A stretch of DNA of 64,000 bases from a virus. Location of the stretch: positions 1-64,000 of IMG/VR virus record IMGVR_UViG_3300029448_000001; one strand, written 5' to 3'. How positions within the stretch are numbered: position 1 is the first letter of the stretch; every line of letters begins with the position of its first letter. A program made the translations under genes and the position numbers. Under the pieces are notes generated by a model. It had not been told where the DNA came from. It ran no database searches and was given only the letters and a program-made list of their open reading frames with translations. Shown one piece after another: positions 18,196 through 60,216 of the stretch.

Positions 18196-18434
18196 TACCT
18201 CATAAATTAAAAGTCGATAAACCTCTATCAGGGTTTACTGAAAGGGAATATTATTCTAAAGCAATTCTAAATACTGACGTTGCATCTTTACTTAAATATA
18301 AAATACAAAAACAAAAAAGCAGTTCTTCTGTATTAGAATTAAATGCAGTAAAAGAAGAAGTTTCGGAAATTCGTCACGAATTAAAAGAAATAAAAAAATT
18401 ACTAATAAAGGTTACAAGCAATGTCGATAGCTAA
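18192..18434 (+). CDS. Small protein with C-terminal coiled coil
   Basis: The protein has 80 residues and starts with ATGA overlap on the preceding giant gene. The N-terminal half (KPLSGFTEREYYSKAILNTD) shows no known motif. The C-terminal 35 residues (VLELNAVKEEVSEIRHELKE then IKKLLIKV) have regular heptad spacing of Leu/Ile/Val, indicating a coiled coil. It overlaps the following fibre gene by 14 bases. A small trimerising or adaptor protein between baseplate and fibre is plausible; no family recognised. Confidence 0.6.
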   Translation: MIPHKLKVDKPLSGFTEREYYSKAILNTDVASLLKYKIQKQKSSSSVLELNAVKEEVSEIRHELKEIKKLLIKVTSNVDS

Positions 18435-19786: not shown

Positions 19787-20314
19787 ATGGCGAAATACGC
19801 ACTTGTAGAAGATAACGAAATAAAAGGAGTCTACGATAATTTACCTAAAACGTGGAGAAACATTAGTAATTTTGATGCTCTTCAAGGTGATACTAGCACT
19901 TTAAAATCTTTTGGTTGGGAAGAAATACAACACCCAACACAAGAGTATGATAAAACAAAATTTAAAAAAGGAAATGTTACTCATACATTAGTTGATGGGA
20001 AAGTTGTAGAATCAAAAACTTTAATTACTAAAAATCTACCAAATCAACAATTCTTCAATGGGTATGAACTTACAGATTCGGGACCTACTGAAGAAGATAT
20101 TGCTAATCAATGGAAATATGTAAGAGAAGATAGAGATAGACGAATGAAAGAAGTTGATTGGAAAATTTTAAGATATCAAAGAGAAGTTAGACTTGAAGAA
20201 ACTCCTACTGAAGATATAGCAACACTAGATACATATATGCAATCTTTAGCTAACATCACACAACAATCAGACCCTTTTGATATAACATGGCCAACTCTTG
20301 ACTCTGAATCTTAA
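19787..20314 (+). CDS. Tail-fibre chaperone-like protein (XkdW/TAC type), copy 1
   Basis: The protein has 175 residues with AGAGG before the ATG. The N-terminus (YALVEDNEIKGVYDNLPKTW) resembles fibre-associated proteins. The C-terminal 60 residues carry the motif WKYVREDRDRRMKEVDWKIL ... LDTYMQSLANITQQSDPFDI-TWPT, the pattern of phage tail assembly chaperone domains (R..RD.RL..TDW..L and ALRDIP.Q.DPFNI.WP). A second gene at 60217 shares it. Both follow fibre/adhesin genes, supporting a role in fibre folding or as a fibre-tip subunit. No promoter is evident between it and the giant gene downstream. Confidence 0.65.
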   Translation: MAKYALVEDNEIKGVYDNLPKTWRNISNFDALQGDTSTLKSFGWEEIQHPTQEYDKTKFKKGNVTHTLVDGKVVESKTLITKNLPNQQFFNGYELTDSGPTEEDIANQWKYVREDRDRRMKEVDWKILRYQREVRLEETPTEDIATLDTYMQSLANITQQSDPFDITWPTLDSES

Positions 20315-20336: not shown

Positions 20337-23300
20337 ATGTTAAGACGAGCCTTACTCACAATACAACCTAGCGATGCAGAGACTCCAGGACCACTTTTTG
20401 CGTGGGGATCTAACGAATCTTTTAATTTAGGAGATTCAACACAAGTTCACAGGTCATCACCAGTTCAAATAACAACGGATAACTTTAAGCAAGTTAAGGG
20501 TAACGGACGGTGGTCTGCTGGCATCAAACAAGACGGTTCACTTTGGGTTTGGGGAGAAGCCCCTAGCGATAAAAGACATTTCTCATCACCTGAAAATCAT
20601 GGCTCTTTAACTGGTGTAACAAATTTTTATCCTAGTGAACCTCTTGATAATGAATTAACAAGATTTACTTCACCAACACAATTAAATTCTGGTGCATGGA
20701 CACAAATTGCAGTAGGAAGAGACCATTTATTAGCACTCAAAGAAGATGGAACTATGTGGGGCTTAGGTTCAAATTATTTTGGACAATTGGGATTAGATCC
20801 AATTGCTAACAAATCAAAATTTGAAGTGCCTATGAAAATAGCATCATCTAGTTATAGAGGTACATTTTTTCTAGATACGCATGGTCAAATATGGGGTTGG
20901 GGTCATAATGAGTACGGAGACTTAGGACAAGGAGATACAAAAGCTAGAAGTTGGCCTGTCCAAATCATGGCTGATAAATCATTTACGTTTTTGTATACTG
21001 GTCATCAAAGTACATTTGCTATTGATGAAAATCAAAAACTCTGGGGTTGGGGAAGAGGTGATTTTGGAGTCTTTGGGCAAAACAATACAATACACTATTC
21101 TTCTCCTGTTCAAATTGATTCTTCTAATAACTATGTTAGTGGTGCTTCTCAATATGGAAGTAATTATATTTTAACTGCTAACGGCGAACTTAATTATCTC
21201 GGAGAAAATACATACGGTCAATCTGCTCAAAACGAACCTGTAGGAAATCATAAATCACAACCTGTTCAAATACCTGCACCTGCTGGACAAAAATGGGCTA
21301 AAATATTTACAGGCAATTCAGGTGGTCAAGCAATTACAAATACTGCACAACTATATGTGTGGGGGCTAAACGGAAAAGGACAACTAGGTCAGAATGATGT
21401 TGTTAGTCGTTCATCACCTGTTCAAATACCTGGAAGTTTTTCTTATGTATCAGGAGATAGAGCAATGAGAGGCTTCTATGCTACCTCTCATGGAAGTCTA
21501 ATGCTTAAAGCTACAAATAATGAAATTTATTTTGTAGGAGATAATACATACGGAACTGGCGCAACAGGTGAACTTGTTCATCGGTCTCAACCTGTTTTAA
21601 TTAGTTCTAAAGGAGCAGAAGAATATAAAAACTTTTACATGACTAGAGTAGGAACACACTTTACTACTTCAGCAAATCAAATATTTGCTACTGGTTATAA
21701 TGACAAAGGAGTTTTAGGTACTAATACAATAGATTATTATAGAGAACCACAACCTTTCCCTAATCAATATGATGAACAATGGAATTCAGATTACATACCT
21801 CCGTCTTACTATCTTCATAGATTAGCTTTTGATACTAGCAATAATCTTTACATGTGGGGTGATAGCGAAAACAATCATGCTTACTCAGTCTTCATGCAAG
21901 ATCATTGGTATGACAAATATCCTCTTCATAATCCTGGCCCAGGTCATGATAACAAATATGGGGATATTGCTACATCTAGATATCGTTCATCACCAGTTCA
22001 AGTCGTAGGAACAAATCTCAATTCATTTACTCAATTAGGTTCAGATAGTTGGATTCAAGTATCTGCAAATGAAAATACTTCAGCGGCAATTAAATCAGAC
22101 TTCTCTTTATATGTTGCAGGTGATATGAGAAGACATCAAAAAGGTTTTGACCCATCAAGTAATACTTCTTTATTTGAATTTACAGAAGTGCCTGCTTATG
22201 AACCACATAGTTGGACACAAATTGATTTAGGAGACCATCATACACTTGCATTAGACAACGATTCTAAATTATATGCATGGGGAAGAAATGACTTTGGTCA
22301 ATTAGGCGACGGAACAAAAACAGACAAAGATTCGCCTGTACTAATCGACTCAGGTAGTTGGTCTAAAGTAAGTGCAGGTTATAATCATTCACTCGCTCTA
22401 AAAAATGATGGTAAGATGTATGCTTGGGGTAGTTCAGGATATGGAGAAGTTGCAAACTCTAGTGTTAAAATTATAGATGTTGCCCGTGGAGGTTGTCAAA
22501 GAACAGGCGCTCATACTCTACAAGAATTTGGAGGATATGTTAAAAGTGATGGAACACTCTTTACATATGGTGGAAATCAATATGGCCAGTTAGGATTAGG
22601 AGATAAAATCCATAGGTCTTCACCAACTCAAGTTATGACTAATGCTGGTAGTTGGGTACAAATAGAAGCAGGTGCTACTGTTTTCTTTGGAAGAACCAAT
22701 GATAATAAATTATGGGCTTGGGGAGATTCTCGATACGGAGGACTAGGAACACTTCAAGGATTAAGCACTACAGAAAAAAGTCGCCCAATTCAGATTGATG
22801 GCCACAATGAGCATAATAATCAAGCAATTCGCTCATGGTCTCAAGTAGGATTAGGGTATGGATATGTAAGTGCAGGAATATCAAACAATAATCTATATGC
22901 TTGGGGATATGGTTCTGACGGAACTGGAGCAACAGGAAACATAGATTCAAGGGCACATAAATCATCACCTGTTCAAATAGGTTTATTTCAAAAAGGAAAC
23001 TGGACAAAAACACTAACAGGATATCGTTTTGGAGTTGCACTAACATCAAATGGAACTATTCACACATTTGGATTAAACAACTACGGTCAATTAGGATTAA
23101 ATGATGTTCTCTCTCGTTCACAACCTATTCAAGTTGGAGAAGCAAATACATGGTCTGACTTTGCAGTAGGAGGTTATCATTGCGTAGCTAGAAAGAAAGA
23201 TGGAACTTTGTGGAGTTGGGGTAGAAATGATAGTGGGGAAATAGGAGATAATACAGTAGTTGATAGGTCTTCTCCAGTTCAAATATCTGGAAGTTGGAAT

Positions 23301-26300
23301 CAAGTTTTTGCAGGTGCTAATAGAACATATGCTAAAAATACTTCTAACAATTTATTTGCATGGGGTGGAGCCCCTCAAGGACAACTTGGAGATAACACAG
23401 TTGTAAGTAAATCTTCTCCAGTTCAAATTGTTCTAGGGTCAGATAAAAACTTTACAGTTCTTTCTGTTGGAGGTCATACAGGAGGAATCACAGATTCTAA
23501 TCAGCTATGGATTTGGGGTGTTAATGACTTTGGTCAATTAGGAAATGGAACAACCGCAAATAAATCTTCTCCTGTACAAATTTCAGGTAGTTGGGATAGT
23601 GTTTCTACAAATGATTATGATGGATATCAAGCGACTGATAGAGGCGGTCATACAATAGCTGTATCAAATACAGGAGGACTTTATGCTTGGGGTCAAGGAA
23701 CTCATGGCTCTACAGGATTTAATAGTCTTTCTTATAATGTAAATTCTCCTGTGCAAATTCTATGGGGTTCAAATACAGGTTTTGATGTAGCAAATACTTC
23801 ATTTAAAATTGCCTTAAGTGGTGAAGAAAATTCAGGAGCAATAGACTCTTTAGGTAAATTATGGACTTGGGGTAGAAATGCATATGGAACTTTGGGTCAA
23901 CAAGTTCATGGACAAGCTGGTGATTTTTATCGCTCAGAACCTACAGTAGTTGGAAATACTTTACACACATTCTCTTCAATAGCAAAACTCTCAGCAGATG
24001 CAATAGGTTGTTTAGCTATTCACACAAATGGTCAAGGATATGGTTGGGGAATAAATGACTCTGGTGCAATTGGTATTCAAAATGCCGCTCAACAATCTTC
24101 ACCTATTCAAATAGGTTTAAATACGCATTGGGCATATCCAATGAGTTGGAAACAATTAGCACACTCTAGATATCACTCGGCTGGTATTACTCAACTATCA
24201 GGCAACACAGTAGATTCATTGATGACTTGGGGATCCAATGATGATGGTCAACTAGGCGATAAAAGTGTAGTTGGAAGACAATCTCCTGTTTTAGTAGAGG
24301 CCGCAAGTGCATCTAATTGGATATCAGTAGGAGTCGGATTTAAGCATACAGTAGCAGTCACTTCAGATAATAAAGTTTATTCATGGGGAAATAACGCATT
24401 CTTTAGTTCAATGTATATAGGAGGTCAACGCTCATCTCCAGTTTCAATAAATCACAATACATCTTTTGGACAAGTTCCTCAAGCAATTACAAAAGTAGTT
24501 TGTGGTCCACATCAAACAGCCTTGTTTGCTAACAGTTCATATAAAGGTTATGTTTATACTTTTGGAAATAATAGATCAGGTCAATTAGGAAGACATGGAA
24601 TTTATGACCAAAACTTTTATGGTCCAGCATTAAATGATGATAACAACAGAAGAGGTTATCAAATATTTAATAGTGCAAATGTAGACTTACAATCAGGAAC
24701 AACAGGTTTAAATACTGCTGTTTACGGAAGAGGAGTTCCTGATGGTGGAAATTCAATGTATTATGATTTTCATGCTCAAAATATTACAAATGACAGTCAA
24801 TGGTCAAACTGGAGAAATTCTTACGGATATCAAAAGAGAAATGAATTTGATATAGAGTATATTACTGATATTGATTTTGGAATAGAAAGTTCAAGTGCAA
24901 CAACAGGAGCGAAATATTTTGCTTCAGGTAATAACAGAATAGGGCAATTAGGAACAGGTGAAGCCGCAAATAATACTACAGTAAGTGGTCACTTTGTTGC
25001 AGGCGATTTTGATTCTGTAAATAGAATTCCTAGTAGGTCAAATGCTGTACAAGTAAGTGAAATATCAAACACTACATCAATACTAACACCTACTCTTATA
25101 AATGCAAATAGTTGGTATCAAATATCAGCAGGCAAAAATTATAACTTAGCCATAGATGCAAATAATAAAATATACTCTTGGGGTAGAAATGCTGTAGGTC
25201 AACTAGGACAAGGAACAGTAAGTTCTCCTACATCATCACCTACAATTGTAGAAGGTAGTATGTCTTGGAAACATGTAAGTGCTGGAGAACAACATGCACT
25301 TGCAATTGCATCAAACAATAGACTATATGCTTGGGGCGGAAACTTTCATGGGTCAGGAGCAACTTATCATTATACAACAGGACTTAGAAGCGACCCTGTA
25401 CAAATGCCAGCAGTTGAAAGTTTTGATTCTCCTGCAAATTATAGTTTTGTTCAACACGCTTCAGGTAATAATTTCCATGTAGCGATTAGACAAGATGGGA
25501 CATTGTGGTCTTGGGGATTTAATAATTATGGTCAGTTAGGACTAAACGATATAATTGCAAGATCGTCACCAGCACAAATTGATTCGGGTTCATGGAGTAA
25601 AGTCTTTGCTGGCGATAGTTTTGCGGCGGCAATTAATGCTAACAATAAATTATTCATGTGGGGTATTAACGATCATGGTCAACTAGGAACAAGAGGTGAC
25701 GGCTCAACAATCAATCGTTCATCACCACTTCAAGTAGGAATTGAAACAGTAAGTTACTCAATGGTTGCCGCAGGAGATTCATTCTCAATGGGCATACAAG
25801 CGAATACTGGTCATCTATTTGGGTGGGGAGAAAACAATGCAGGACAGTTAGGACAAAACAATACTATAAACACATCATCTCCTGTTCAAATTGGAAGTGA
25901 ACAATGGCTTACAGTTCAAGCAGGTCAATCTCATGTAATAGCTATAAAACAAAACGGAACTCTATGGGCTTGGGGCGGAAACTCTGTAGGAGAATTGGGA
26001 GATGGTACAACTGTACTAAAATCTTCTCCTATACAAATAGGAACAGCGAACAACTGGTTTACTATATCATCTGAACCTTTAGGAAGATTTACTTTAGCAC
26101 TTACAACTGCCAATCAATTGTATGGTTGGGGAGAAAATAATCAAGGTCAAATAGGTCAGGTAAATACAACAAATTATTCTTCACCTATTGTAATACATTC
26201 AACATCAAGTTGGACAGCCATTTCTGCTGGTAGATATCACTCTATGGCTATTAGCACAGCAAATAAATTATTAGGTTGGGGATATGGAACAACAGGTCAG

Positions 26301-29300
26301 TTGGGAGATGCATCAACTCAATCTAAATCATCTCCTACACAAGTCAGTCTTTCTAATTGGAAAACTGTAGATTGTGGAGAATCTCATGTATTAGCTTTAA
26401 ACACAAGTGATGAGTTATATGCTTGGGGTTATAACGGTCAAGGTCAATTAGGATTAAATAACACTACAAATCAATCTGTTCCTCAAGCAGTCGGTTCAAA
26501 TACATGGAAATTTATAAATGCTGGTTACAGAGGAAGTTCTGGTATCTTAACAAACGGAGATTTATATCTTTGGGGCCAAAATGATTATGGACAATTAGGA
26601 GATAACACAGTTGTAAACAAATCATCGCCTACAGTACTCGCAGGTAAGTGGGATAAAACAGCTATGTCTCAAGAATTTACTCTTGCTCTTGCAAATGGAA
26701 CTGGAATAGCTTGGTCTTGGGGATTAAATAATAAAGGTCAACTAGGAAACTTTGGATTAGATGGAAGTGTTGTTAATAGATCATCACCATCTCAAGTCGG
26801 AGAGTTTCATACTGGAAACACATGGATAGATGTTGCAATGGGAGATGACTTTACTGTTGCTATTCGTGAAGACAAAACTATGTGGGGTTGGGGTAAAGGT
26901 AACAACGGAGTTCTAGGAAATCTTAATATACTTCATAGGTCATCACCTGTACAAATAGGTACAGCTTCATGGGATCAAGTTGCCGCTGGATATTATCATG
27001 TAGTCGCAGTCGCAAATTCGACTGGATATCTATATGGTTGGGGTGCAGGAGCAAATGGAAAAATAGGGCATAATAAAACTACAAACTCATCTTCACCTGT
27101 ACAGATAACATCAGATGCATATAAAAATGTTGCCGCCGGAGAAATAAATTCATTTGCTATTAAAAATGATGACACTCTTTGGGGTTGGGGATATAGATGG
27201 GCTAATGGTTGGCCTGGAGATGGAAATCGTTATGCTAAATCAGAACCAGTTCAAGTTTGGAATGGAAATTCAGCAGAGAATCATGATTGGAAACAAATGG
27301 CCGCCGCTACAAATCACGCTGTTGCAATTAAGCATGATGGCAGTCTATGGACTTGGGGACATAATGGCTATGGAGAATTAGGTCAAAATGATGTAAAACA
27401 CCGTTCTTCAAGAGTTCAAGTAGGTACAAGTACTGATTGGATAGAATGTCATGCTTCAATTTACGGAACATATGCCATCAATGCAAACAATCAACTATAT
27501 GTTTGGGGATATAATAATTATGGGCAGTTAGGAACAGGTAACAGAACAAACTATTCATCGCCAGTTCAGGTAGCTGGAAGTTGGATAACAATGAACGCTG
27601 ATGAATATACTGTAAGTGCAATAAATTCAGCGAATCAATTATTCAGTTGGGGTTCAAATAATTATGGTCAAGTAGGAGATGGAACTAAAATAAATCGTTC
27701 TTCTCCTGTACAAGAAAACTCAGGACAAAGTTGGAGAAAAGTAACTGGTGGGTCTAGTGGTGTTAGTGGACATAAGTTAGCACTTAGAGAAGATTATACT
27801 CTTTGGGGTTGGGGATATAATGGAGGTAACATTATTGAAAGAGGTAATGGCGGAAATAGAGCGACAGGTGGTGCCCATGCACAAATGCAAAAATGGCAGA
27901 TAGGAACAGAGATTGAAAATCAATCTTATACTTATGTAAGTTCAGGTAGATATACTAACATGGCAATTGCCGCAAATGGTTCTATATGGGTAGCTGGATA
28001 TAATGGATATGGCCAATTCGGAGTAGGTGATGTACTTAATCGTTCTTCAGCAGTTCAGCTAACAGCAGGTGCAGGAAAGTCTTGGATTGAAGTAGAACAA
28101 GGACAAAACTTTGCATTCGGTATTAAAAATGACGGAACTCTATGGAGTTGGGGTCACAATAATTACGGTCAGCTTGGAGATAATAGTATCGTAAACAAAT
28201 CTTCTCCTGTTCAGATTACACACCCAGGCGGAAGAAGTTGGCTTCATGTTGTAGGAAATGAAAACGGAGCGGCCGCTTTAGACCAAGATAATAAACTTTA
28301 TGCGTGGGGATATGAACTTCAAGCCCCACCTAACGCAAATAATGCCTTAAATACTGGAGCCTATCATAGTAGACCTATACAAATAGATTCTTGCGAAACT
28401 CATGAAAATAGAAATAGTTGGAGACAAATTGCTTTAAATACAGGAGCAACATCATTTACCTCTGCCGTCAGAGCAGACGGAACTTTATGGACTTGGGGTC
28501 AAGATAATCACGGACAGTTAGGTCATAATACACTAAACATACATTGTTCCTCACCTGTTCAAGTAGGAGGTAGCTGGTTAGCAACAGCTATAGGAAATTA
28601 TTTCACAATAGGAATTAAAGACAATGGAAGTTTATGGGCTTGGGGATATAATAATTATGGGCAGTTAGGACAAAACAATATTAATATTAGTCGCTCATCT
28701 CCTGTACAAATAGGTAGTTCTACAGATTGGAAACAAGTTAGTGCGACAACTTCTGGTGCGGCCGCCATCAATGCGAACAATCAATTATATGTTTGGGGAT
28801 ATAACACTTATGGAGAAATGGGACAAAATAATACAGCACATTATTCTTCTCCAGTTCAAGTAGCAGGTAGTTGGTTAATGGTTTCAGGAGGACATCATTA
28901 CTTCTTAGGAATTAAAACTGATAGAACACTACACGCATGGGGTTACAATAGTTCAGGTAGATTAGGAAATAATTCAGTAGCAAATAAATCAAATCCTGTA
29001 CAGATAGGATTATCTCAATGGGGATTCGTAGATGCTGGTTGGGAACACTCAGCCGCTATTAGAAAAGATGGTAGACTGTATATGTGGGGTCTTAATAATA
29101 TAGGACAATTTGGAAATACACAAAACTCTACTATAAATGCATCTTCACCTGTTCAATTACCTGGAACAGATAGTTGGGCTCAAGTAACAACTAAAACATA
29201 TAGAGCAACACAGGCACTTAGAAGTGATGGAGCGTTGTTTGTATGGGGTCAAGATAATACTGGTTGTCATGGAACATTTGACTATAAACACGCTTTATCT

Positions 29301-32300: not shown

Positions 32301-33011
32301 TTTACTCACGCAATTACAACAAATAATGAATTATTTACTTGGGGATTGAATTATTACGGAACAACTGGACTAAATGAAGTTTTTGCAACTGATGGTGGTA
32401 CTGTTCACAAATCATCTCACACTTTAGTTAAAGCTGGTACAAGTTTTGTTTCAGTTACAGCGTATCATAATACAGTAGGTGCTTTGACAACTAATGGAGA
32501 TATATGGGTTTGGGGAGACCAAACACAATCAGGATTTAAAGAAACAAATATGGTACATAGGTCAAAACCAACTCTCATACCAGGAGACAGGTCTTGGAAT
32601 CATGTAAGTGCTGGTAATAATTATAGTGCCGCCATAACATCAAATTCAGAACTATGGACATGGGGATTAAATACTGATGGTCAACTAGGATTAAATGATA
32701 CAGTTCATAGAAGTAATATTTCTCAAGTTACAGGAACTTGGAAAGTTGTTGAAACAGGAAATAATCATACAGGAGCATTTGATTCAAGTAATGCAATTCA
32801 TACATGGGGTAAAAATGACGTTGGTCAGTTAGGAACTAATGATAATTATCCTTTCTATACAAATCGCTCAACACCTACTGCAATTGCTACTGGTTCAAAT
32901 AATCATTCTCAGTTATCTGTAGGTAAAGATTATTCTATGATAATTGACTCATCTAACGGAATACTAGCTTGGGGACATAATAAATATGGAAAAACAGGAG
33001 TAAGAGATTAA
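20337..33011 (+). CDS. Giant RCC1-repeat protein 1 with embedded cupredoxin-like domain
   Basis: A single uninterrupted frame of 4224 codons. Nearly the whole protein is made of RCC1-type repeats of about 50 residues: a YAWGxNxxGQLGDGT strand, a hydrophilic turn, RSSPVQIxxxSW and VSAGxxHxxAIxxDGxL. At that spacing there could be about 80 blades, i.e. about eleven seven-bladed propellers if they group as in eukaryotic RCC1; the number is an estimate. The series is broken at about residues 3015-3125 by a cupredoxin-like domain. No signal peptide or membrane segment is seen. No clear ribosome site precedes the ATG. Position between the gp8/fibre block and gene 13 corresponds to T4 11-12-wac, so a long fibre or adhesin binding surface glycans or proteins is likely. 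RCC1 folds serve protein and chromatin binding in eukaryotes; here only the fold is inferred. Confidence 0.85.
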   Translation: MLRRALLTIQPSDAETPGPLFAWGSNESFNLGDSTQVHRSSPVQITTDNFKQVKGNGRWSAGIKQDGSLWVWGEAPSDKRHFSSPENHGSLTGVTNFYPSEPLDNELTRFTSPTQLNSGAWTQIAVGRDHLLALKEDGTMWGLGSNYFGQLGLDPIANKSKFEVPMKIASSSYRGTFFLDTHGQIWGWGHNEYGDLGQGDTKARSWPVQIMADKSFTFLYTGHQSTFAIDENQKLWGWGRGDFGVFGQNNTIHYSSPVQIDSSNNYVSGASQYGSNYILTANGELNYLGENTYGQSAQNEPVGNHKSQPVQIPAPAGQKWAKIFTGNSGGQAITNTAQLYVWGLNGKGQLGQNDVVSRSSPVQIPGSFSYVSGDRAMRGFYATSHGSLMLKATNNEIYFVGDNTYGTGATGELVHRSQPVLISSKGAEEYKNFYMTRVGTHFTTSANQIFATGYNDKGVLGTNTIDYYREPQPFPNQYDEQWNSDYIPPSYYLHRLAFDTSNNLYMWGDSENNHAYSVFMQDHWYDKYPLHNPGPGHDNKYGDIATSRYRSSPVQVVGTNLNSFTQLGSDSWIQVSANENTSAAIKSDFSLYVAGDMRRHQKGFDPSSNTSLFEFTEVPAYEPHSWTQIDLGDHHTLALDNDSKLYAWGRNDFGQLGDGTKTDKDSPVLIDSGSWSKVSAGYNHSLALKNDGKMYAWGSSGYGEVANSSVKIIDVARGGCQRTGAHTLQEFGGYVKSDGTLFTYGGNQYGQLGLGDKIHRSSPTQVMTNAGSWVQIEAGATVFFGRTNDNKLWAWGDSRYGGLGTLQGLSTTEKSRPIQIDGHNEHNNQAIRSWSQVGLGYGYVSAGISNNNLYAWGYGSDGTGATGNIDSRAHKSSPVQIGLFQKGNWTKTLTGYRFGVALTSNGTIHTFGLNNYGQLGLNDVLSRSQPIQVGEANTWSDFAVGGYHCVARKKDGTLWSWGRNDSGEIGDNTVVDRSSPVQISGSWNQVFAGANRTYAKNTSNNLFAWGGAPQGQLGDNTVVSKSSPVQIVLGSDKNFTVLSVGGHTGGITDSNQLWIWGVNDFGQLGNGTTANKSSPVQISGSWDSVSTNDYDGYQATDRGGHTIAVSNTGGLYAWGQGTHGSTGFNSLSYNVNSPVQILWGSNTGFDVANTSFKIALSGEENSGAIDSLGKLWTWGRNAYGTLGQQVHGQAGDFYRSEPTVVGNTLHTFSSIAKLSADAIGCLAIHTNGQGYGWGINDSGAIGIQNAAQQSSPIQIGLNTHWAYPMSWKQLAHSRYHSAGITQLSGNTVDSLMTWGSNDDGQLGDKSVVGRQSPVLVEAASASNWISVGVGFKHTVAVTSDNKVYSWGNNAFFSSMYIGGQRSSPVSINHNTSFGQVPQAITKVVCGPHQTALFANSSYKGYVYTFGNNRSGQLGRHGIYDQNFYGPALNDDNNRRGYQIFNSANVDLQSGTTGLNTAVYGRGVPDGGNSMYYDFHAQNITNDSQWSNWRNSYGYQKRNEFDIEYITDIDFGIESSSATTGAKYFASGNNRIGQLGTGEAANNTTVSGHFVAGDFDSVNRIPSRSNAVQVSEISNTTSILTPTLINANSWYQISAGKNYNLAIDANNKIYSWGRNAVGQLGQGTVSSPTSSPTIVEGSMSWKHVSAGEQHALAIASNNRLYAWGGNFHGSGATYHYTTGLRSDPVQMPAVESFDSPANYSFVQHASGNNFHVAIRQDGTLWSWGFNNYGQLGLNDIIARSSPAQIDSGSWSKVFAGDSFAAAINANNKLFMWGINDHGQLGTRGDGSTINRSSPLQVGIETVSYSMVAAGDSFSMGIQANTGHLFGWGENNAGQLGQNNTINTSSPVQIGSEQWLTVQAGQSHVIAIKQNGTLWAWGGNSVGELGDGTTVLKSSPIQIGTANNWFTISSEPLGRFTLALTTANQLYGWGENNQGQIGQVNTTNYSSPIVIHSTSSWTAISAGRYHSMAISTANKLLGWGYGTTGQLGDASTQSKSSPTQVSLSNWKTVDCGESHVLALNTSDELYAWGYNGQGQLGLNNTTNQSVPQAVGSNTWKFINAGYRGSSGILTNGDLYLWGQNDYGQLGDNTVVNKSSPTVLAGKWDKTAMSQEFTLALANGTGIAWSWGLNNKGQLGNFGLDGSVVNRSSPSQVGEFHTGNTWIDVAMGDDFTVAIREDKTMWGWGKGNNGVLGNLNILHRSSPVQIGTASWDQVAAGYYHVVAVANSTGYLYGWGAGANGKIGHNKTTNSSSPVQITSDAYKNVAAGEINSFAIKNDDTLWGWGYRWANGWPGDGNRYAKSEPVQVWNGNSAENHDWKQMAAATNHAVAIKHDGSLWTWGHNGYGELGQNDVKHRSSRVQVGTSTDWIECHASIYGTYAINANNQLYVWGYNNYGQLGTGNRTNYSSPVQVAGSWITMNADEYTVSAINSANQLFSWGSNNYGQVGDGTKINRSSPVQENSGQSWRKVTGGSSGVSGHKLALREDYTLWGWGYNGGNIIERGNGGNRATGGAHAQMQKWQIGTEIENQSYTYVSSGRYTNMAIAANGSIWVAGYNGYGQFGVGDVLNRSSAVQLTAGAGKSWIEVEQGQNFAFGIKNDGTLWSWGHNNYGQLGDNSIVNKSSPVQITHPGGRSWLHVVGNENGAAALDQDNKLYAWGYELQAPPNANNALNTGAYHSRPIQIDSCETHENRNSWRQIALNTGATSFTSAVRADGTLWTWGQDNHGQLGHNTLNIHCSSPVQVGGSWLATAIGNYFTIGIKDNGSLWAWGYNNYGQLGQNNINISRSSPVQIGSSTDWKQVSATTSGAAAINANNQLYVWGYNTYGEMGQNNTAHYSSPVQVAGSWLMVSGGHHYFLGIKTDRTLHAWGYNSSGRLGNNSVANKSNPVQIGLSQWGFVDAGWEHSAAIRKDGRLYMWGLNNIGQFGNTQNSTINASSPVQLPGTDSWAQVTTKTYRATQALRSDGALFVWGQDNTGCHGTFDYKHALSRREVLNAEHKSSPVQIHLDYHYRSFVPVVNKSYAVTFGGTGYYSLDDGITPAQLNRDVYLYRGVSYTFNVNASGHPFYIKSALGSGSTGEYTSGVTNNGTDSGTVSFVVPMDAPDTLYYQCGIHSGMNAVINVTGNTTFKLLNGGYQHIFALSGNAQFSNLYGWGYREIGRIGDTTGQRTASVNGRRSAPVQISNFESYDSFTHVSSESRGLQAITANGQLMVWGYGDNGELGQGDVTNYFSPVQLGGRSANVAAPINFTYRGTTKLPTSWYMASGGQRQSVAIDTSNNLWSWGLNNYGQGGLNHPLNNDRSQPMQIAETKDISFTKIDSGETYSIAVANDGSLWSWGVGEFGQLGLTSRIARSSATQIGSSSWTSVSTGESHALAISSNGSLYAWGSNRYGQLGDNTKISKSSPVLISTSSWSDIGTGEFHSIALRNDGRVFVWGRNDFGQLGLNLQNEHIGNETAYKSSPVSLGTSSFVFVTAGKESSFAIRSDKALFSWGANQNGVLGQDDLTFRSSPVQIGTSSYNFVSSDGYHTVAVTSDNKLFSWGRNLEGLVGDNTIINRSSPVQISGTWFTAYAGNNTTHAITTSNAVFGWGYGGFGGIGDNERIHRSSPVQVATGTSFIAVSSGNGFSQFIAANNTLYNTGMVEHGYLATSTATTPQGNAPYLAGYDKWKWAETGNEFTLAVCKEGRTGLIANNLYGFGRNLGSPIDTTYAGTTVNYPVPIVHLEDGERRFFSGNTQPTYANVTYGKLARSNFGIDVSNRGGNGLAIDDTGTYRNNGTGTDYGELAKTNLQIDVGAASIFHRSSPVQIGAGSWAVIASAWTASYAIRHDGSLWSWGGGGTGRLGLNHASTIYSPARLSSSESWNAVMSIGAGAFALRKDGTMWSWGAGGQGRGGRGDTLNTSSPIQIGTDDTWIALANTTGQDDLDWTGAIANTNGTSTSGHLYAWGDSASGQLHQVGVSEGPHGMPGIHDLSSPVQLGFKSWSNVDSGYRFTHAITTNNELFTWGLNYYGTTGLNEVFATDGGTVHKSSHTLVKAGTSFVSVTAYHNTVGALTTNGDIWVWGDQTQSGFKETNMVHRSKPTLIPGDRSWNHVSAGNNYSAAITSNSELWTWGLNTDGQLGLNDTVHRSNISQVTGTWKVVETGNNHTGAFDSSNAIHTWGKNDVGQLGTNDNYPFYTNRSTPTAIATGSNNHSQLSVGKDYSMIIDSSNGILAWGHNKYGKTGVRD
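27503..28670 (+). repeat. Exact 31-base direct repeat inside RCC1 gene 1
   Basis: The 31 bases at 27503-27533 and 28640-28670 are identical, coding for the conserved WGYNNYGQLG blade strand. Many further near-identical blade segments occur throughout 20.4-39.8 kb (for example 33942 onwards). They mark recent duplication or conversion among blades. Confidence 0.8.
29379..29708 (+). other. Cupredoxin-like domain within RCC1 protein 1
   Basis: Codons about 3015-3124 of the giant protein do not follow the RCC1 pattern. They read as a plastocyanin-like beta-sandwich: YAVTFGGTGYYSLDD, DVYLYRGVSYTFNVNASGHP, FYIKS, VSFVVPMDAPDTLYYQCGIH and SGMNAVINVTG. The type-1 copper ligand set is complete: His3063 in GHPF, Cys3109, His3112 and Met3115 with C-x2-H-x2-M spacing, as in amicyanin. 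Similar domains lacking proof of copper occur in marine phage fibres. Copper binding is inferred from residues only. Confidence 0.7.
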
Positions 33012-36000
33012 ATGACTAAAAAAGTTTTTTCCATAAACACCCCTAAAAAATTAGGGAGTGCTAACTCAGTACCTAAGAGTTGGACTCAAGTACAAGTTGC
33101 GCCTACAGGAATAATGGCTAAAGATGCCGATGATTTTTTATTCGCTTGGGGCTCTAGTGGATATGCTAATACTACTATTTTTGGTGGGGCAGGTCCAGCA
33201 TCTTCACCTACGTCAGGAAATAATGTATTTAATTTAGATAGCACAGAACTACAACCTGTTCCTCATCAAGCGTTAGGTTTGCCTAATGCACAAGCGATAA
33301 AAAAACTTATATTTGCAGGTCATGGAAATGATCAAACAGCATATGCTATAACGCAAGATGGCGACCTTTATGCTTCAGGATTTAACACTTATGGAGTAGG
33401 TGGAGGACGAGGAGGAGGTCCTAACTTTGGAGATTCGACTTATAATCTTAATGATGTAAAACAAGCTAGGTCTAGCTTTACTCAAATTTTTAGTGGTCAA
33501 AGAGGAGTAGAACACCCAGAACATACACAACTTATTGATAAAGGTGTTCATGATATAGATTCTAACAGATACGCTGTAGGTATGATAAAAAATGATGGAA
33601 CTCTTCATACATGGGGATATAATCATTTAGGTCAATTAGGAGCAAATAGCACTCAAATTTTATATTCTCCAGTTCAAATAGGTAATGAAAGATATAGAAA
33701 AGTTTTAATGGGTATGCATGACGACCAGAACTCAACTATGGCTTTAAGAGATGACCACACTCTTTATATGTGGGGTTCAAATGAATATGGTCAATTAGGA
33801 ATTACTCATGGACACACTACTTGGCATACAATCGACCGTTCATCTCCTAATCAAGTAACATCAGGAACAGGCAGTTTTATTCACATTTCTTCAAGTGGTA
33901 AACATAGTGCCGCAATAGATTCAGAGAATAGACTTTATATGTGGGGATATAATAATTACGGACAGTTAGGTGTCGGTAATATAGCAAATAGGTCATCTCC
34001 AACACAAGTTCCAGGTAGTTGGTCACAAGTAGAAACAGGGTACGATACGACTTATGCTTTGACTACTGATAATCAATTATTTGCATGGGGAAGAAAACAT
34101 GTTGGTTCTATACCTGAACACCCATTTAATGCAAATCGTTCATCGCCTATAGCTTTAAAAGGAAACAATAATAATACAGGAGCAAACGTAAGTTTTGGAT
34201 TAGTTAGTTGGACAAACATCGCCGCAATTGATTATGGAGGTATTGCTGTAGAGGCAACTACAAATACTGCTTATGTTTGGGGTTCTAATGATGTAGGACA
34301 ATTAGGTCTAGGCGATAGTGCTAATAAATCTAGTTTTGTTGCCATAGGAACACATAACGGAGGGCATCTTTCTAATAAGAGTTGGTATAATGTAGATGCT
34401 GGTCCTAGAAATATAATATTATATGATCCTGATGGTAAAATATATGTATCAGGTGGTGATTACTACGGAGCAACAGGTAGAAGAAAGTCTGTTAATGCAC
34501 AAAATAATAAGCGTGTATATAGAAGTTTTCCTATACAAGTAAGCACAGTAGATGAATCTAAATGGTATTATCCACAAAAAATTCAAACAGGTTCAAACAC
34601 AGCATTCAAAGAATTTTCAGTAGGTCAAAATCATGGACTTGCAATAGACTCTAACGATAAACTTTGGGGTTGGGGTAATTTTGCTGGTCGTGATTTTTTT
34701 GCAAATACAACAGAACATAACTCTTGGAAAAAAATTGCATCAGCCCATACTCATAGTATAGGTCTTACAGATGATGGAGAAGCATATGCATGGGGAGAAA
34801 ATAATTGGGGTCAGCTTGGAACAGGAGAAAAAACGCATAGGTCTTCCCCTGTTCAAATTCCATCTGAAGAAGGCACAAGTTGGATTGATGTAGATGCAGG
34901 AACAGGTTATTCAGCACTTGTTAGAAGTGATAAAACTTTATGGACTATGGGAAGAAATGAGTATGGTCAGTTAGGTCCTAGAATGTTTGCTAACAATACT
35001 CTCTACTATGGTACTACAACTGGAATATATTCTCATAGAAGTTCTCCAATACAAATAGGTTCGCATGAAGGAGTTCGCAAATATAAATCTCTTGGTATAG
35101 GACAACATACTTCTTATGCACTTGATGAAGATGGGAATGTATTTGCTTGGGGAAGAAATGGAAGTGGTTCTTTAGGTGACATGGGTCCAGGAGGAGCAGT
35201 AACAAGTAAAAGTTCTCCAGTACAACTAACTATAGCATATAAGAATGATGGCTCTGCTCATTACGGAGCAAATAATACTTTTGCTGGAGGTGGAATACCA
35301 GATGAAGACAATACTTTTAATGTAGCAGGCAACTTTAACGCTAGAAGATTTAGTGCAGTAGATATTGTAGGTTCTATGGCTGACCATGCAGTTATACTTG
35401 ATGAGTACGGAAGAACATTTCATTTTGGACTTAATACATGGGGACCATACGGATTCAATGATATTGTAAGTAGAAGTACGCCCTACTTAAATACAGTTTT
35501 TGGACAAAAAAGTTTCGCACAAGTATCTTTAGGGTCAAATTATGGAATGTATCTTACACATGATGGACAGTTATGGACATCAGGTCATAATCCTGATGGA
35601 AGATTAGGAGACAATACAGTTATTTCTCGTTCCTCTCCTGTACAAATATCACACCCTAATTCTAGAAGTTGGAGTCAAGTATCAGCAGGTTTTGGACAAT
35701 GTTATGCATTAGATGAAGATTATAAACTTTGGGGTTGGGGTAGAGCGAATATGGGAAGGCTAGGACCTTCTAATAACAATCAATCATCACCAGTTCAAAC
35801 TGATGCAGGATTCACAAGAGCAAACATGGGAGTAAGTGTAATCTCAATGGCCGCTGGTGGAGAATACTCAGGTCATGTTCTTTCTAATAATGCTTTGTAT
35901 ATGTACGGAACAGGAACTTATGGTCAGTTAGGAAAAAATGATATATTAGCTTCAAGTTCTCCAATTCAGATTGCATCAGATAAAACATGGAAAACAATAC

Positions 36001-39000
36001 ACACAGCACAAAGTTTTACTCATGGAATAACAACAGACAAACAACTTTGGGGTTGGGGAGATAATAGATGGGGATCAGTAGGAGATAACACGATAATAAA
36101 TCGTTCATCACCAGTTCAAATAGCAGGAAGTTGGAATGTTGTTGCGACTGGTGGTGGAAATAGAACACATAATTGTTTAGCAATCAAATCAGACGGAACA
36201 CTATGGTCTTGGGGTTATAATGCACAAGGTCAATTGGGTCTTAATGATGTTGTAGGAAGGTCATCACCAGTTCAAATAGGAACAAAATCTGATTGGACAA
36301 TCGTAGCCGCTAATTATTATAATGGAGCGGCGATTAATGCTAACAATGAATTATTTGTTTGGGGAGATGGTCCTCAAGGATCGATGGGAGATAATACAGC
36401 AGTATCTAAATCTTCTCCAATTCAAGTAACTGGTAGTTGGCAACAAGTCGTATCAGGTGATAGATGGTTCTGGGCTTTAAGTTCAGCGAATCAAGTGTTT
36501 GGTTGGGGTTATAATAACTACGGACATGTTTCAGCAGACACTACTAAAACTAATAAATCTCAACCAGTTCAAGTTGCTACTGGTAGCAGTTTTGCTTTCA
36601 TAGGTGCATTGTCAGGAACAGCATGTATGGGAGATACAAACGGAAAATTATTTGCAGTAGGCTATAATGGTCATGGTGCTGTTGGTGACGGAACTACTGC
36701 ACACAGGTCAACAGTTACCGCAATACTGACACAAAGAAATACTCCTAGAGCGTTTTCTGCCGCTTACTGGAATGAAGGTAGTATAGCGAGAGAAATAACA
36801 GGAGGTTATCATCACTGGCAAATGCTAGACAATTCTAATACATTGTTTGCATGGGGTCATGGAACTACTAATCAATTAGGTCAAATGGGAACAGGATTAA
36901 CAACTCCAAACAAATCTAGTCCAGTTCAAGTTTATGGAAATGATAGTTGGGTTCAAATTTGTGCAAGATTTAACAACGCTACCATAGATGGTGTTTTAGC
37001 AATTAAATCTGATGGAACGGCATGGATTCATGGCTACAATGGAAATGGAGTAGATACTTATGATGGTTCTTTAGGAATTAATGAAATTAATTCTACTTAT
37101 TATTCTCCTGTTCAAGTATCTCTTCCGTCAGGCTTTGATGCATCAGGTAAAAAACCTTGGTTTCACGGACATGGTGGATTTGTTTTTGAAGCAAATACAT
37201 TGTCTACAGCACAAACTGTTTATGGTTGGGGAAGAAATGAACACTCAACATTAGGCTCAAGATATTTTAAATATCATAGGTCTTCTCCAGTTTTAATAAA
37301 TTCTGGCAAAAAATATAAAGATATAAAAACATTTACAACTACAACTGCTGGAGGTCATAGTTTAGGAGTTGATGAAGACGATATACTTTGGTCATGGGGC
37401 GGTTCTTATACTACTAATCATGGAGAATTAGGATTCGCAACATTACTAGACAGATTCCATAGGTCATCTCCTACGCAAGTAAAACTAGCACATCAATGGA
37501 GACCAGAGTCAACAAAAGAAGTAGGAGTACCTGGAACTGAATGGGTTTCAGATATTGTTTCTGTATCGTGTGGTAGAAAATATGATGATTCTGCTTTAGG
37601 TAATATGTCAGTTCTTACAGAATCAGGTAATGTATTCTCATGGGGCCATAACGCAACTTACGGAGGTCTTGGAGATAATACAGTTGTAAATAGAAGCGAG
37701 CCTGTTCAATTAGGGTTTAATTTAGACGGACAATTTGAGGGAATTAGTTTTAGTGCATTATCTACTCATGCATTTGGTGGATTTGCAATCGGAAGTACAT
37801 CAACAACTAATTCAAAATATGGAGCAAATAGTTTATGGGGTTGGGGTAGAAATGATGTAGGAATGCTTTCAAAACAAGCTGAAGATGTAGTAGCATACTC
37901 ATTTCCTATTCAAGTAGATGGAGCGTTTCACGATCAATTCTGGACTAAATGGGACACTTATAGATATCATGGAATCGGAATCGCTAATAACGGAACTTTA
38001 TGGGTTTCAGGATATAATCAGAATGGGTGCTTAGGTCAAAATTTAAATCCAACAGAACTTGTAGCAAGGTCATCTCCAATTCAAGTAGGAACAGCAAATA
38101 ATTATATTGATGTTGCCGCTGGAGATTATAGTTGCTATGCAATTAAAGATGATGGTAAACTTTTTGCATGGGGGTATAATGCTCAAGGGCAACTAGGACA
38201 AAATGATACTCTAAATCGTTCATCACCTGTTCAAGTTAGACCTGGAACATCATTCACTTCAGTATCAACTTCTTATCGACATGTTTTAGCTACTACTTCA
38301 TCTAATAATATAGTGGCATGGGGAGAAAATACTTCTGGTCAATGTGGAATCAATAATGCGTTAAATGTATCTTCACCGACTCAAATTGGAATATCAACTT
38401 GGAGTAAAATTAAAGTAGGTATTCATCATTCTCTTGCAATAGGAAAAGGATTTTTAAATAATGCTGGAGGATTATACACATGGGGATATAATGTAGTTGG
38501 AGGAGTTTTAGGACAAAATAATGTTGCTAATCTATCTAATCCTACTCAAATTGGAACACACACAAATACAAATAAACTTGCGGCAGGATATCAAAATACT
38601 AAATGGATTAATACTGCAAATCAAATGTTTGTAGTTGGTTATAATACCTATGATGAATTAGGTCAAGGAGATACAGTCCATCGTTCATCGCCCGTTCAAC
38701 TTGCAGGTAGTTGGACTGAGGTAACAAGCGGTTATAATCATGCAATAGCAACTGCGGCTAATGGAACTATATTTGGTTGGGGTCTTAGAACAAGTGGTCA
38801 AGTAGGAGATGGAACTACAACTGCAAATACAAGAGACTTTGGAATACAATTAGTTGCAACAGCGAACAGTTATTATCACCCAAATCCTACAAATGTAAGT
38901 CTTCTTTATTCTGGAGTTTACAATTCAGGTATTATTGATGCAAATAATAAAAGATATGAATTTGGAACAAATGAGTGGGGTCATGCAGGAAGAATCTTCT

Positions 39001-39845
39001 GGGCAGTTGGTGGAGCCCATCACTCAAGTGCTGTTCAAGTTACAGGAAATAAACAATGGCAAACAATAGCTGTAAGAGATGCAGTAGGAGGTCAGGCTAT
39101 ACAGAAAGATACAAATAAATTATGGGCATGGGGATATAACTCTCATGGAGAATTAGGTTTGAATAATCAACTAAATCAATCTTCTCCAACTCAAATATGG
39201 GGAGATGATATAACTAGCGTAACTGATGGAATGCATCACACAATAGGGTGGACTGCTAATACAGGCAAGATGTATATGGTAGGATATAATGACCAAGGTC
39301 AAATAGGTCAAAATGATGTAAGTGTTAGTCGCTCAACACCAACTCAAATAACAGGTGAAGCAAACATACAAGGCATACATGTAAATGGAAATAATTGGTC
39401 AAATGTTTGGGGTGGAGAGAGAAGTGTTTTTGCAGAACTAAAACATTCTAACAAAAGAATTTATGCATGGGGATATGAGGGTATTAGGTCATTTGCAAAA
39501 CTTGGTTTAGGATATAGGAATGATTTTGTTTATACTCCTACGCCAATGGTAGGAAATTATTTTGGAAACACAGAGATTAGTAGATTTGAAACTTCTTTGC
39601 CTGCTCAAATTGGAAATTTAAATTACAAATATGTCGCCGCAGGAAATAATATTTCTTACGCTATATCAGACACAGATTTAATTTATTCATGGGGAAATAA
39701 TCGTGAAGGTCAACTTGGTAGATATGGAGAAGCGAATTCTGAATTTGAATCATTTAGTCCTGTACAAATAGGTGTCGTAGCAGACACCTATCGAAGAGTT
39801 TACTCAGGAAATACAGGAGCGTTTGGAATTAAGTTTAGAGTCTAA
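33012..39845 (+). CDS. Giant RCC1-repeat protein 2
   Basis: A 2277-codon frame begins immediately after the stop of the first giant gene (TAA then ATG), so translation is probably coupled. It opens with a non-repetitive N-terminus (MTKKVFSINTPKKLGSANSV) and then RCC1-type blades such as LYMWGYNNYGQLGVGNIANR followed by SSPTQVPGSWSQVETG, roughly 40 at about 50-residue spacing (estimate). It has no cupredoxin insert. Blades are close to those of protein 1, so the pair arose by duplication and diverged. No signal peptide or membrane segment is visible. It is unlikely to be a frameshifted part of protein 1, since it has its own start and N-terminal leader. A fibre/adhesin role is inferred from location and repeat architecture. 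Confidence 0.82.
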   Translation: MTKKVFSINTPKKLGSANSVPKSWTQVQVAPTGIMAKDADDFLFAWGSSGYANTTIFGGAGPASSPTSGNNVFNLDSTELQPVPHQALGLPNAQAIKKLIFAGHGNDQTAYAITQDGDLYASGFNTYGVGGGRGGGPNFGDSTYNLNDVKQARSSFTQIFSGQRGVEHPEHTQLIDKGVHDIDSNRYAVGMIKNDGTLHTWGYNHLGQLGANSTQILYSPVQIGNERYRKVLMGMHDDQNSTMALRDDHTLYMWGSNEYGQLGITHGHTTWHTIDRSSPNQVTSGTGSFIHISSSGKHSAAIDSENRLYMWGYNNYGQLGVGNIANRSSPTQVPGSWSQVETGYDTTYALTTDNQLFAWGRKHVGSIPEHPFNANRSSPIALKGNNNNTGANVSFGLVSWTNIAAIDYGGIAVEATTNTAYVWGSNDVGQLGLGDSANKSSFVAIGTHNGGHLSNKSWYNVDAGPRNIILYDPDGKIYVSGGDYYGATGRRKSVNAQNNKRVYRSFPIQVSTVDESKWYYPQKIQTGSNTAFKEFSVGQNHGLAIDSNDKLWGWGNFAGRDFFANTTEHNSWKKIASAHTHSIGLTDDGEAYAWGENNWGQLGTGEKTHRSSPVQIPSEEGTSWIDVDAGTGYSALVRSDKTLWTMGRNEYGQLGPRMFANNTLYYGTTTGIYSHRSSPIQIGSHEGVRKYKSLGIGQHTSYALDEDGNVFAWGRNGSGSLGDMGPGGAVTSKSSPVQLTIAYKNDGSAHYGANNTFAGGGIPDEDNTFNVAGNFNARRFSAVDIVGSMADHAVILDEYGRTFHFGLNTWGPYGFNDIVSRSTPYLNTVFGQKSFAQVSLGSNYGMYLTHDGQLWTSGHNPDGRLGDNTVISRSSPVQISHPNSRSWSQVSAGFGQCYALDEDYKLWGWGRANMGRLGPSNNNQSSPVQTDAGFTRANMGVSVISMAAGGEYSGHVLSNNALYMYGTGTYGQLGKNDILASSSPIQIASDKTWKTIHTAQSFTHGITTDKQLWGWGDNRWGSVGDNTIINRSSPVQIAGSWNVVATGGGNRTHNCLAIKSDGTLWSWGYNAQGQLGLNDVVGRSSPVQIGTKSDWTIVAANYYNGAAINANNELFVWGDGPQGSMGDNTAVSKSSPIQVTGSWQQVVSGDRWFWALSSANQVFGWGYNNYGHVSADTTKTNKSQPVQVATGSSFAFIGALSGTACMGDTNGKLFAVGYNGHGAVGDGTTAHRSTVTAILTQRNTPRAFSAAYWNEGSIAREITGGYHHWQMLDNSNTLFAWGHGTTNQLGQMGTGLTTPNKSSPVQVYGNDSWVQICARFNNATIDGVLAIKSDGTAWIHGYNGNGVDTYDGSLGINEINSTYYSPVQVSLPSGFDASGKKPWFHGHGGFVFEANTLSTAQTVYGWGRNEHSTLGSRYFKYHRSSPVLINSGKKYKDIKTFTTTTAGGHSLGVDEDDILWSWGGSYTTNHGELGFATLLDRFHRSSPTQVKLAHQWRPESTKEVGVPGTEWVSDIVSVSCGRKYDDSALGNMSVLTESGNVFSWGHNATYGGLGDNTVVNRSEPVQLGFNLDGQFEGISFSALSTHAFGGFAIGSTSTTNSKYGANSLWGWGRNDVGMLSKQAEDVVAYSFPIQVDGAFHDQFWTKWDTYRYHGIGIANNGTLWVSGYNQNGCLGQNLNPTELVARSSPIQVGTANNYIDVAAGDYSCYAIKDDGKLFAWGYNAQGQLGQNDTLNRSSPVQVRPGTSFTSVSTSYRHVLATTSSNNIVAWGENTSGQCGINNALNVSSPTQIGISTWSKIKVGIHHSLAIGKGFLNNAGGLYTWGYNVVGGVLGQNNVANLSNPTQIGTHTNTNKLAAGYQNTKWINTANQMFVVGYNTYDELGQGDTVHRSSPVQLAGSWTEVTSGYNHAIATAANGTIFGWGLRTSGQVGDGTTTANTRDFGIQLVATANSYYHPNPTNVSLLYSGVYNSGIIDANNKRYEFGTNEWGHAGRIFWAVGGAHHSSAVQVTGNKQWQTIAVRDAVGGQAIQKDTNKLWAWGYNSHGELGLNNQLNQSSPTQIWGDDITSVTDGMHHTIGWTANTGKMYMVGYNDQGQIGQNDVSVSRSTPTQITGEANIQGIHVNGNNWSNVWGGERSVFAELKHSNKRIYAWGYEGIRSFAKLGLGYRNDFVYTPTPMVGNYFGNTEISRFETSLPAQIGNLNYKYVAAGNNISYAISDTDLIYSWGNNREGQLGRYGEANSEFESFSPVQIGVVADTYRRVYSGNTGAFGIKFRV

Positions 39846-52888: not shown

Positions 52889-52898
52889 GGAGATATAA

Positions 52899-56986: not shown

Positions 56987-56997
56987 AGGAAAATTAA

Positions 56998-57366: not shown

Positions 57367-57367
57367 G

Positions 57368-58576: not shown

Positions 58577-58580
58577 AATT

Positions 58581-60206: not shown

Positions 60207-60216
60207 GGAGATATGA

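What the first reader, a model, noticed from the sequence alone, without database searches (positions are those of the whole stretch)
20337..39845. Two giant RCC1-repeat proteins fill about 30% of the window
4224 and 2277 codons of nearly continuous RCC1-type blades (WGxNxxGQLG ... RSSPVQI ... GxxHxxA) stand in tandem in the place of T4 11-12-wac. RCC1 propellers are best known from eukaryotic chromatin and signalling proteins; arrays on this scale, possibly about 120 blades in all, are very unusual for a virion. They may form long beads-on-a-string fibres or a surface-binding adhesin, and consume a great deal of coding capacity.
Basis: partly seen in the sequence, partly recalled or inferred. 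Interest (0 to 1): 0.8.

Follow-up and report, generated by a model that had tools for sequence, protein, structure and literature searches.

The report
Giant split RCC1-propeller adhesin of T4-like phage
A T4-like phage spends about 20 kb on a chain of some 112 RCC1 propeller blades encoded by two genes that meet inside one blade; similar giant, fast-changing arrays sit next to a heptosyltransferase-like gene in dozens of other uncultivated phages, pointing to an overlooked class of phage surface fibre or adhesin.

Summary
Observation confirmed: ORFs A (4,224 aa) and B (2,277 aa) are almost wholly RCC1 repeats (Pfam E=0 and 1.8e-156). I count 109 blades by HMM and about 112 by a cyclic-profile parse (16 x 7, if two long inserts are each read as lying inside one blade). 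New points: (1) A and B share a frame, separated by one TAA followed directly by ATG, and meet inside a blade: A ends after the WGxNxxG hairpin, B begins at the SSPVQI-type strand. The same split position recurs at eight further RCC1-RCC1 junctions in other phages, often with coupled stop/start codons. (2) Relatives mostly carry multiples of seven blades, some larger (three linked ORFs, 11,565 aa). (3) Gene 41628-43433, modelled as a GT9/WaaF/TibC-like heptosyltransferase, has homologues beside RCC1 arrays in 72 of 80 loci; HldE- and HldD-like genes lie next to it here. (4) Between close relatives this GT is 90-99% identical, the array mostly 63-72%, with changes concentrated in loops of one ring face. 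(5) RCC1 proteins are virion components in coliphages W70 and GAP32. Best reading: a host-recognition adhesin built from split, possibly glycosylated propeller strings. Virion location, trans-assembly and glycosylation remain inferred.

The parts
20337..33011 (+). RCC1 array chain A, 4,224 aa, about 73.5 blades; short N-terminal leader MLRRALLTIQ that resembles the leaders of first-chain arrays in relatives; ends in mid-blade
33009..33014 (+). TAAATG: A's stop and B's start, adjacent and in the same frame, inside one blade (A ends at blade-model position 18; B's first homology is the SSPVQI-type segment NTPKKLG)
33012..39845 (+). RCC1 array chain B, 2,277 aa, about 38.5 blades; starts with the second half of a blade, lacks the leader of A, ends with a complete blade
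29400..29760 (+). Cupredoxin-like insert within one blade of A (residues about 3022-3141; HPF...YYQCGIHSGM); assignment by eye, no Pfam or PDB sequence match
18421..19770 (+). Tail-fibre-like protein (449 aa); homologues precede RCC1 arrays in relatives
19787..20314 (+). Tail-fibre-assembly-like protein directly upstream of A; same position in many relatives
41628..43433 (-). 601-aa fusion: short helical N-terminus + GT-B glycosyltransferase domain (predicted fold closest to GT9, WaaF, WaaC and TibC) + C-terminal methyltransferase-like domain
   Evidence: linkage
40916..41626 (-). GT25-like glycosyltransferase
   Evidence: linked in relatives
40107..40919 (-). GT2-like glycosyltransferase (weak, below Pfam cut-off)
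43443..44414 (-). HldD-like ADP-heptose 6-epimerase (TIGR02197, 271.5 bits against a cut-off of 274.6)
44652..45932 (-). HldE-like bifunctional heptose-7-P kinase / heptose-1-P adenylyltransferase (PRK11316 E=1.1e-114, below its equivalog cut-off)

Best explanation
A and B are two translationally coupled chains of one surface adhesin of the virion (tail or neck fibre, or a sheath of fibres), made of about sixteen seven-bladed RCC1 propellers strung like beads. SHOWN by sequence: blade content, shared frame, mid-blade junction and its recurrence in other phages, approximate multiples of seven, tight linkage to a GT9/heptosyltransferase-like gene, much faster divergence of the array than of that neighbour, and concentration of changes in loops of one face. 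INFERRED: (i) the last half-blade of A and the first half-blade of B complete one blade in trans and so link the chains; (ii) the leader of A (MLRRALLTIQ, resembling MLLEKLL-type leaders of other first-chain arrays), placed just after the tail-fibre-assembly gene, attaches or targets the chain to the virion, B being distal; (iii) the variable face binds diverse cell-surface glycans or proteins, many weak contacts giving avidity; (iv) the GT9-like enzyme, using ADP-heptose supplied partly by the phage HldE and HldD, glycosylates the array, working like TibC on autotransporter adhesins, although it is not a TibC-family member. Probabilities: host-recognition or adhesion role 0.7; in-virion location 0.7; trans-completed blade 0.6; glycosylation of the array rather than of host LPS 0.35.
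For: Location in the region between VrlC and the neck genes that pelagimyophage work calls the host recognition cluster (PMC7029224), downstream of fibre and assembly genes. Other phages fuse RCC1 blades to fibre-type domains (L104, L098, L092). W70 virions contain three proteins of phrog_4219, the PHROG that A and B match best, with 141-233 spectra each (PMC11370258); GAP32 gp1 is another RCC1-type virion protein. Multiples of seven in relatives. Split junctions in the window, G030, G031 (two), G034, G037, L140, L146 and L099. AF2 of the read-through junction places strands on both sides in the normal blade order; Foldseek best hits are RCC1-like domains (UVR8, HERC2, RPGR). GT homologues: 72 of 80 loci have an RCC1 ORF (5 of the other 8 are cut at a contig edge); from the RCC1 side 21 of 35 loci have the GT; none of 29 T4-like records found by gp14 has RCC1; distant alphaproteobacterial GT9 loci have none. 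GT fold hits GT9, WaaF, TibC, WaaC. Array 0.63-0.72 identical where the GT is 90-99% in most close pairs; pN 0.22-0.47 at positions 8, 10, 11, 18-21, 41-43 against 0.07-0.20 elsewhere in three independent pairs, same direction in a fourth, very close pair.
Against: No proteomics exists for this phage. The array has no detected attachment domain beyond a short leader. AF2 confidence on the two-ring junction model is low (pLDDT 62, pTM 0.46), so ring closure across the junction is inconclusive. The total of 112 depends on reading two long inserts as inside single blades, and a multiple of seven arises by chance one time in seven; other split sets give 113, 129 and 214 by the same count. Split positions could mark a loop that tolerates gene fission. 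SSP Ser residues are as common in arrays without the GT, so there is no glycosylation-site signal. High synonymous divergence in the arrays means recombination as well as selection. The 80 GT loci are the closest relatives of a GT chosen from an RCC1 locus, so 72 of 80 overstates the family-wide rate.
Confidence: 0.6

Rival explanations
1. One 6,502-codon gene was broken recently by a nonsense change (or an assembly error); B is a reinitiation product or dead, and the split has no function.
For: A and B share the frame, separated by exactly one TAA; G038 and L199 show frameshift- or nonsense-like breaks of the accidental kind.
Against: The same blade position is split in eight other junctions, several out of frame and with TAATG or ATGA overlaps that single substitutions do not create; downstream chains begin with their own M and lack the leader of first chains; B is open over 2,277 codons.
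Confidence: 0.15
2. The RCC1 proteins act inside the capsid or cell on DNA (condensation or packaging), as suggested in the phage literature from the RCC1 name (PMC7247149, PMC11370258).
For: RCC1 of eukaryotes binds nucleosomes; phage RCC1 proteins occur in purified virions.
Against: Genes sit in the tail-fibre/host-recognition block, not with head genes; fusions to fibre-type domains; hypervariability on one face and fast divergence are unlike a DNA-packaging protein; linked glycosyltransferases.
Confidence: 0.08
3. The arrays are made in the infected cell and exported or displayed there (superinfection exclusion or cell aggregation), and the sugar genes remodel host LPS; the array is not part of the virion.
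For: Glycosyltransferases in this region are proposed to modify host O-antigen (PMC7029224); HldE/HldD normally serve LPS core synthesis.
Against: No obvious signal peptide by eye in A or B (not run through a predictor); phage RCC1 proteins of the same PHROG are in virions; position next to a tail-fibre-assembly gene.
Confidence: 0.17

Closest known systems
Phage RCC1 virion proteins, PHROG 4219 family (W70_237-239; GAP32 gp1; 121Q and phAPEC6 copies)
   Same: RCC1 repeats, same PHROG (for W70), several copies per genome; in virions by mass spectrometry for W70 and GAP32
   Different: W70 proteins are about 40-43 kDa (single-propeller size); here about 112 blades in two linked chains in a T4-like host-recognition cluster with a heptosyltransferase-like gene
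RCC1 locus of Synechococcus phage BUCT-ZZ01 (Kyanoviridae)
   Same: Tail fibre, small ORF, RCC1 array, full-length homologue of the GT/methyltransferase gene (45% identity), VrlC-like gene nearby
   Different: One 700-aa, 14-blade gene instead of two giants; annotated 'BNR repeat domain protein'
Host recognition cluster of pelagimyophages (PMC7029224)
   Same: Hypervariable region between VrlC and neck genes with fibres and glycosyltransferases
   Different: RCC1 is not mentioned in that paper; SAR11 host not established for this phage
TibC / bacterial autotransporter heptosyltransferases acting on TibA and AIDA-I
   Same: Predicted GT-B heptosyltransferase fold, ADP-heptose supply, partner gene for a large repetitive protein
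   Different: No four-cysteine iron-finger; partner is an RCC1 array, not an autotransporter
Eukaryotic RCC1-like domains (UVR8, HERC2, RPGR, RCC1)
   Same: Seven-bladed RCC1 fold, best sequence and fold matches
   Different: One propeller per domain; no Ran-exchange or DNA role indicated here

Membership tests
RCC1 repeat family (PF00415) | Repeats score above the Pfam gathering cut-off | tested here: met
   A 1,164.9 and B 509.1 bits against 21.7
RCC1 repeat family (PF00415) | Seven blades per propeller | tested here: inconclusive
   Relatives' genes are mostly 7, 14, 21, 28, 35, 42, 77 or 84 blades; in the window A and B separately are not multiples, the sum of about 112 is; AF2 junction model low confidence
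Phage RCC1 virion proteins (PHROG 4219) | Sequence match to the PHROG | tested here: met
   E=6.5e-282 (A), 7.6e-122 (B)
Phage RCC1 virion proteins (PHROG 4219) | Present in purified virions | not testable with these tools
   Known for W70 and GAP32, not for this phage
T4 short tail fibre / whisker (gp12, wac) | Same genomic place (before gp13) | tested here: met
   gp13- and gp14-like genes follow at 46013 and 46768, with the sugar gene block on the opposite strand in between
T4 short tail fibre / whisker (gp12, wac) | Sequence homology | tested here: not met
   No fibre or whisker family among PHROG or Pfam hits except weak phrog_20500 'tail protein' in B
Bacterial autotransporter heptosyltransferase (TibC family) | GT-B heptosyltransferase fold | tested here: met
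   4rap, 4rb4, 1psw, 3tov among best fold matches, prob 1.00, TM 0.4-0.5
Bacterial autotransporter heptosyltransferase (TibC family) | Iron-finger with four conserved cysteines | tested here: not met
   Only one invariant Cys in 16-17 homologues; TibC needs four
Bacterial autotransporter heptosyltransferase (TibC family) | Heptosylates its partner protein | not testable with these tools
   Inference from gene linkage and HldE/HldD only
Pelagimyophage | VrlC-to-neck host recognition cluster | tested here: met
   phrog_358 gene 12040-18195 (taken as VrlC from its place) to gp13 at 46013
Pelagimyophage | SAR11 host | not tested
   Nearest terminases 48-49% identical to both cyanophages and HTVC008M; no psbA found in the record

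The most novel reading that the evidence does not exclude
A class of phage surface fibre built from strings of RCC1 propellers encoded by consecutive genes, where neighbouring chains are joined by completing one split blade in trans, one face of every ring is diversified for binding, and a dedicated heptosyltransferase decorates the string.
Probability: 0.3. Interest if true: 0.88.

Novelty: new variant of a known kind. Interest (0 to 1): 0.72.

Why it matters
Phage RCC1 proteins are filed by PHROGs under 'DNA, RNA and nucleotide metabolism' and have been suspected of DNA condensation. The data here point to a host-contact role instead: very large, fast-evolving propeller arrays paired with a glycosyltransferase, widespread in uncultivated T4-like phages. 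If the recurrent split blade is a real trans-joint, it is a way to build very long protein fibres from gene-sized pieces, testable in a cultivated relative on a laboratory cyanobacterium.

Tried and rejected
Whole-ring duplication: no lag-7 peak in blade-to-blade identity. Chance similarity: excluded. Close relatives of B in IMG/VR: none by six peptide patterns. Fibre gene 18421-19770 as a hook in IMG/VR: no relatives. GmhA in the genome (full ADP-heptose pathway): not found. Extra Ser sites in arrays with the GT: not seen. Cupredoxin insert by Pfam or PDB sequence: no match, kept as by-eye only. GIY-YIG homing endonuclease: none. Rfam families and tRNAs in the window: none. Papers on gene transfer agents and rumen phages returned for 'RCC1' were locus-tag or strain-name matches. 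The 0 of 29 control used many short contigs, so it is a weak base rate.
Full report
OBSERVATION. The two ORFs are open and nearly wholly RCC1. A starts at 20337, B at 33012; together they take 30.5% of the window. The blade HMM finds 109 blades. A cyclic-profile parse, which counts fractional repeats, gives 73.4 blades for A and 38.3 for B after merging two insert-split segments with their neighbours; with the piece between model positions 18 and 32 at the junction the sum is about 112, or 16 x 7. This total carries an uncertainty of at least one blade. Blades are about 32% identical on average, with no lag-7 periodicity.

JUNCTION. A ends ...GILAWGHNKYGKTGVRD*, B begins MTKKVFSINTPKKLGSANSVPKSWTQV; one TAA separates them in the same frame and ATG follows at once. 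Hairpin and following strands are parts of one normal blade: B's NTPKKLG...SWTQV matches the SSPVQI...SW part. In relatives, consecutive RCC1 genes fall into two groups. In one, both genes hold whole blades (ends at model 41-47 or 1-4). In the other, the upstream gene ends at model 15-20 and the downstream gene starts in the next segment (G030, two in G031, G034, G037, L140, L146; L099, where only the last strand is on the downstream gene). Stop/start signals there include TAATG, ATGA and TAAATG. G034 and L146 are close relatives, so independent cases are fewer than nine. G038 and L199 look like accidental breaks. First-chain genes often start with a short leader such as MLLEKLL or MLRRALL; downstream chains start with M plus the blade segment and lack it.

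MULTIPLES OF SEVEN. Complete genes of relatives usually hold 7, 14, 21, 28, 35, 42, 77 or 84 blades, with exceptions (100, 58, 20, 27, 26) that may be degenerate blades. Split sets counted the same way give 112 (window), 113 (G034), 129 (G037) and 214 (G031), so the rule is suggestive for them, not shown.

STRUCTURE. AF2 of the read-through junction (842 aa, TAA read as Q) has pLDDT 62 and pTM 0.46. Strands 578-582, 602-608, 618-623 and 627-632 around the junction follow the normal order with block confidences of 53-85. Foldseek finds UVR8, HERC2 and RPGR domains (E down to 2.5e-29), most with poor superposition (rmsd about 17) and one full-domain match, 4jhn_D, TM 0.76. So the blade fold is supported; ring closure across the junction is not settled.

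GENE CONTEXT. Order here: baseplate genes, a phrog_358 gene taken as VrlC, fibre-like gene, assembly-like gene, A, B, then on the other strand GT2-like, GT25, GT/methyltransferase, HldD-like, a 119-aa small protein, HldE-like, then gp13-gp17. In relatives the order fibre, assembly, RCC1, GT, GT25, HldD/HldE, gp13 is mostly seen with RCC1 and GT on one strand, so the sugar block appears inverted here.

LINKED GT. Homologues of 41628-43433 lie by RCC1 ORFs in 72 of 80 IMG/VR loci; five of the eight others are cut at the contig edge. The loci are the nearest relatives of an RCC1-linked query, a bias. From the RCC1 side, 21 of 35 loci carry it. In 50,697 phage records it matches 8, and three distinct phages (BUCT-ZZ01, S-SRM01, AG-345-E08) have both. 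Among bacterial genomes, 14 of 75 loci have RCC1 nearby, nearly all among the closer GT relatives. The AF2 model (pLDDT 85) matches GT9, WaaF, TibC and WaaC best, and HldE/HldD-like genes sit beside it, so a heptosyltransferase is the best guess. The four iron-finger cysteines of TibC are absent. [quoted passage not shown]

VARIATION. In G033 and G040 the array is 67.7% identical while the GT is 94.8% and GT25 97%; most other close pairs behave alike, L198/L201 (95%) and L194/L196 (83%) less so. Changes concentrate at model positions 8, 10, 11, 18-21 and 41-43. These positions were picked from G033/G040; L168/L171, L097/L200 and L194/L196 repeat the contrast (pN 0.47 v 0.16, 0.46 v 0.20, 0.22 v 0.07). 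From the model's strands (B 2-6, C 23-29, D 34-39, A 43-47) they fall in or at the edge of the BC and DA loops, which in an antiparallel meander lie on the same face. dN/dS stays below or about 1, and synonymous change is also high in the array, so recombination contributes.

LITERATURE. W70 virions contain three phrog_4219 RCC1 proteins (PMC11370258). GAP32 gp1 was in virions (PMC5259590). phAPEC6 encodes eleven RCC1-like proteins, suspected there of ordering DNA (PMC7247149). The pelagimyophage paper describes the host recognition cluster without mention of RCC1 (PMC7029224). I found no paper describing giant arrays, the split blade or the GT pairing in the library searched.

VERDICT. The thing is real, large and not unique. 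The adhesin or fibre reading is the best supported; split-blade joining and glycosylation are testable proposals.

Noticed in passing
window 29400-29760: Cupredoxin-like insert (HPF...YYQCGIHSGM) inside one blade of A, by eye only.
   Followed up: partly
window 56998-57366: 122-aa protein without family match; homologues lie directly upstream of RCC1 genes in L090, L091, L096, L100, L105 and near them in G034 and G040.
   Followed up: partly
window 55202-60660: Second tail-fibre cassette: collagen-like fibre, Gly-rich proteins and another assembly-like protein, between portal and head genes.
   Followed up: no
window 52340-53489: Two adjacent tail-tube-like genes (phrog_45).
   Followed up: no
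window 44303-44662 (-): 119-aa small protein between HldD- and HldE-like genes; looks cupin-like by eye, not searched.
   Followed up: no
L246 and L297 (Planctomycetota chromosomes): Bacterial RCC1 gene next to a related GT, so the pairing is not only viral.
   Followed up: no
G031 (loci L213, L214): Three linked RCC1 ORFs of 3,289, 3,107 and 5,169 aa, larger in total than the window's pair.
   Followed up: partly
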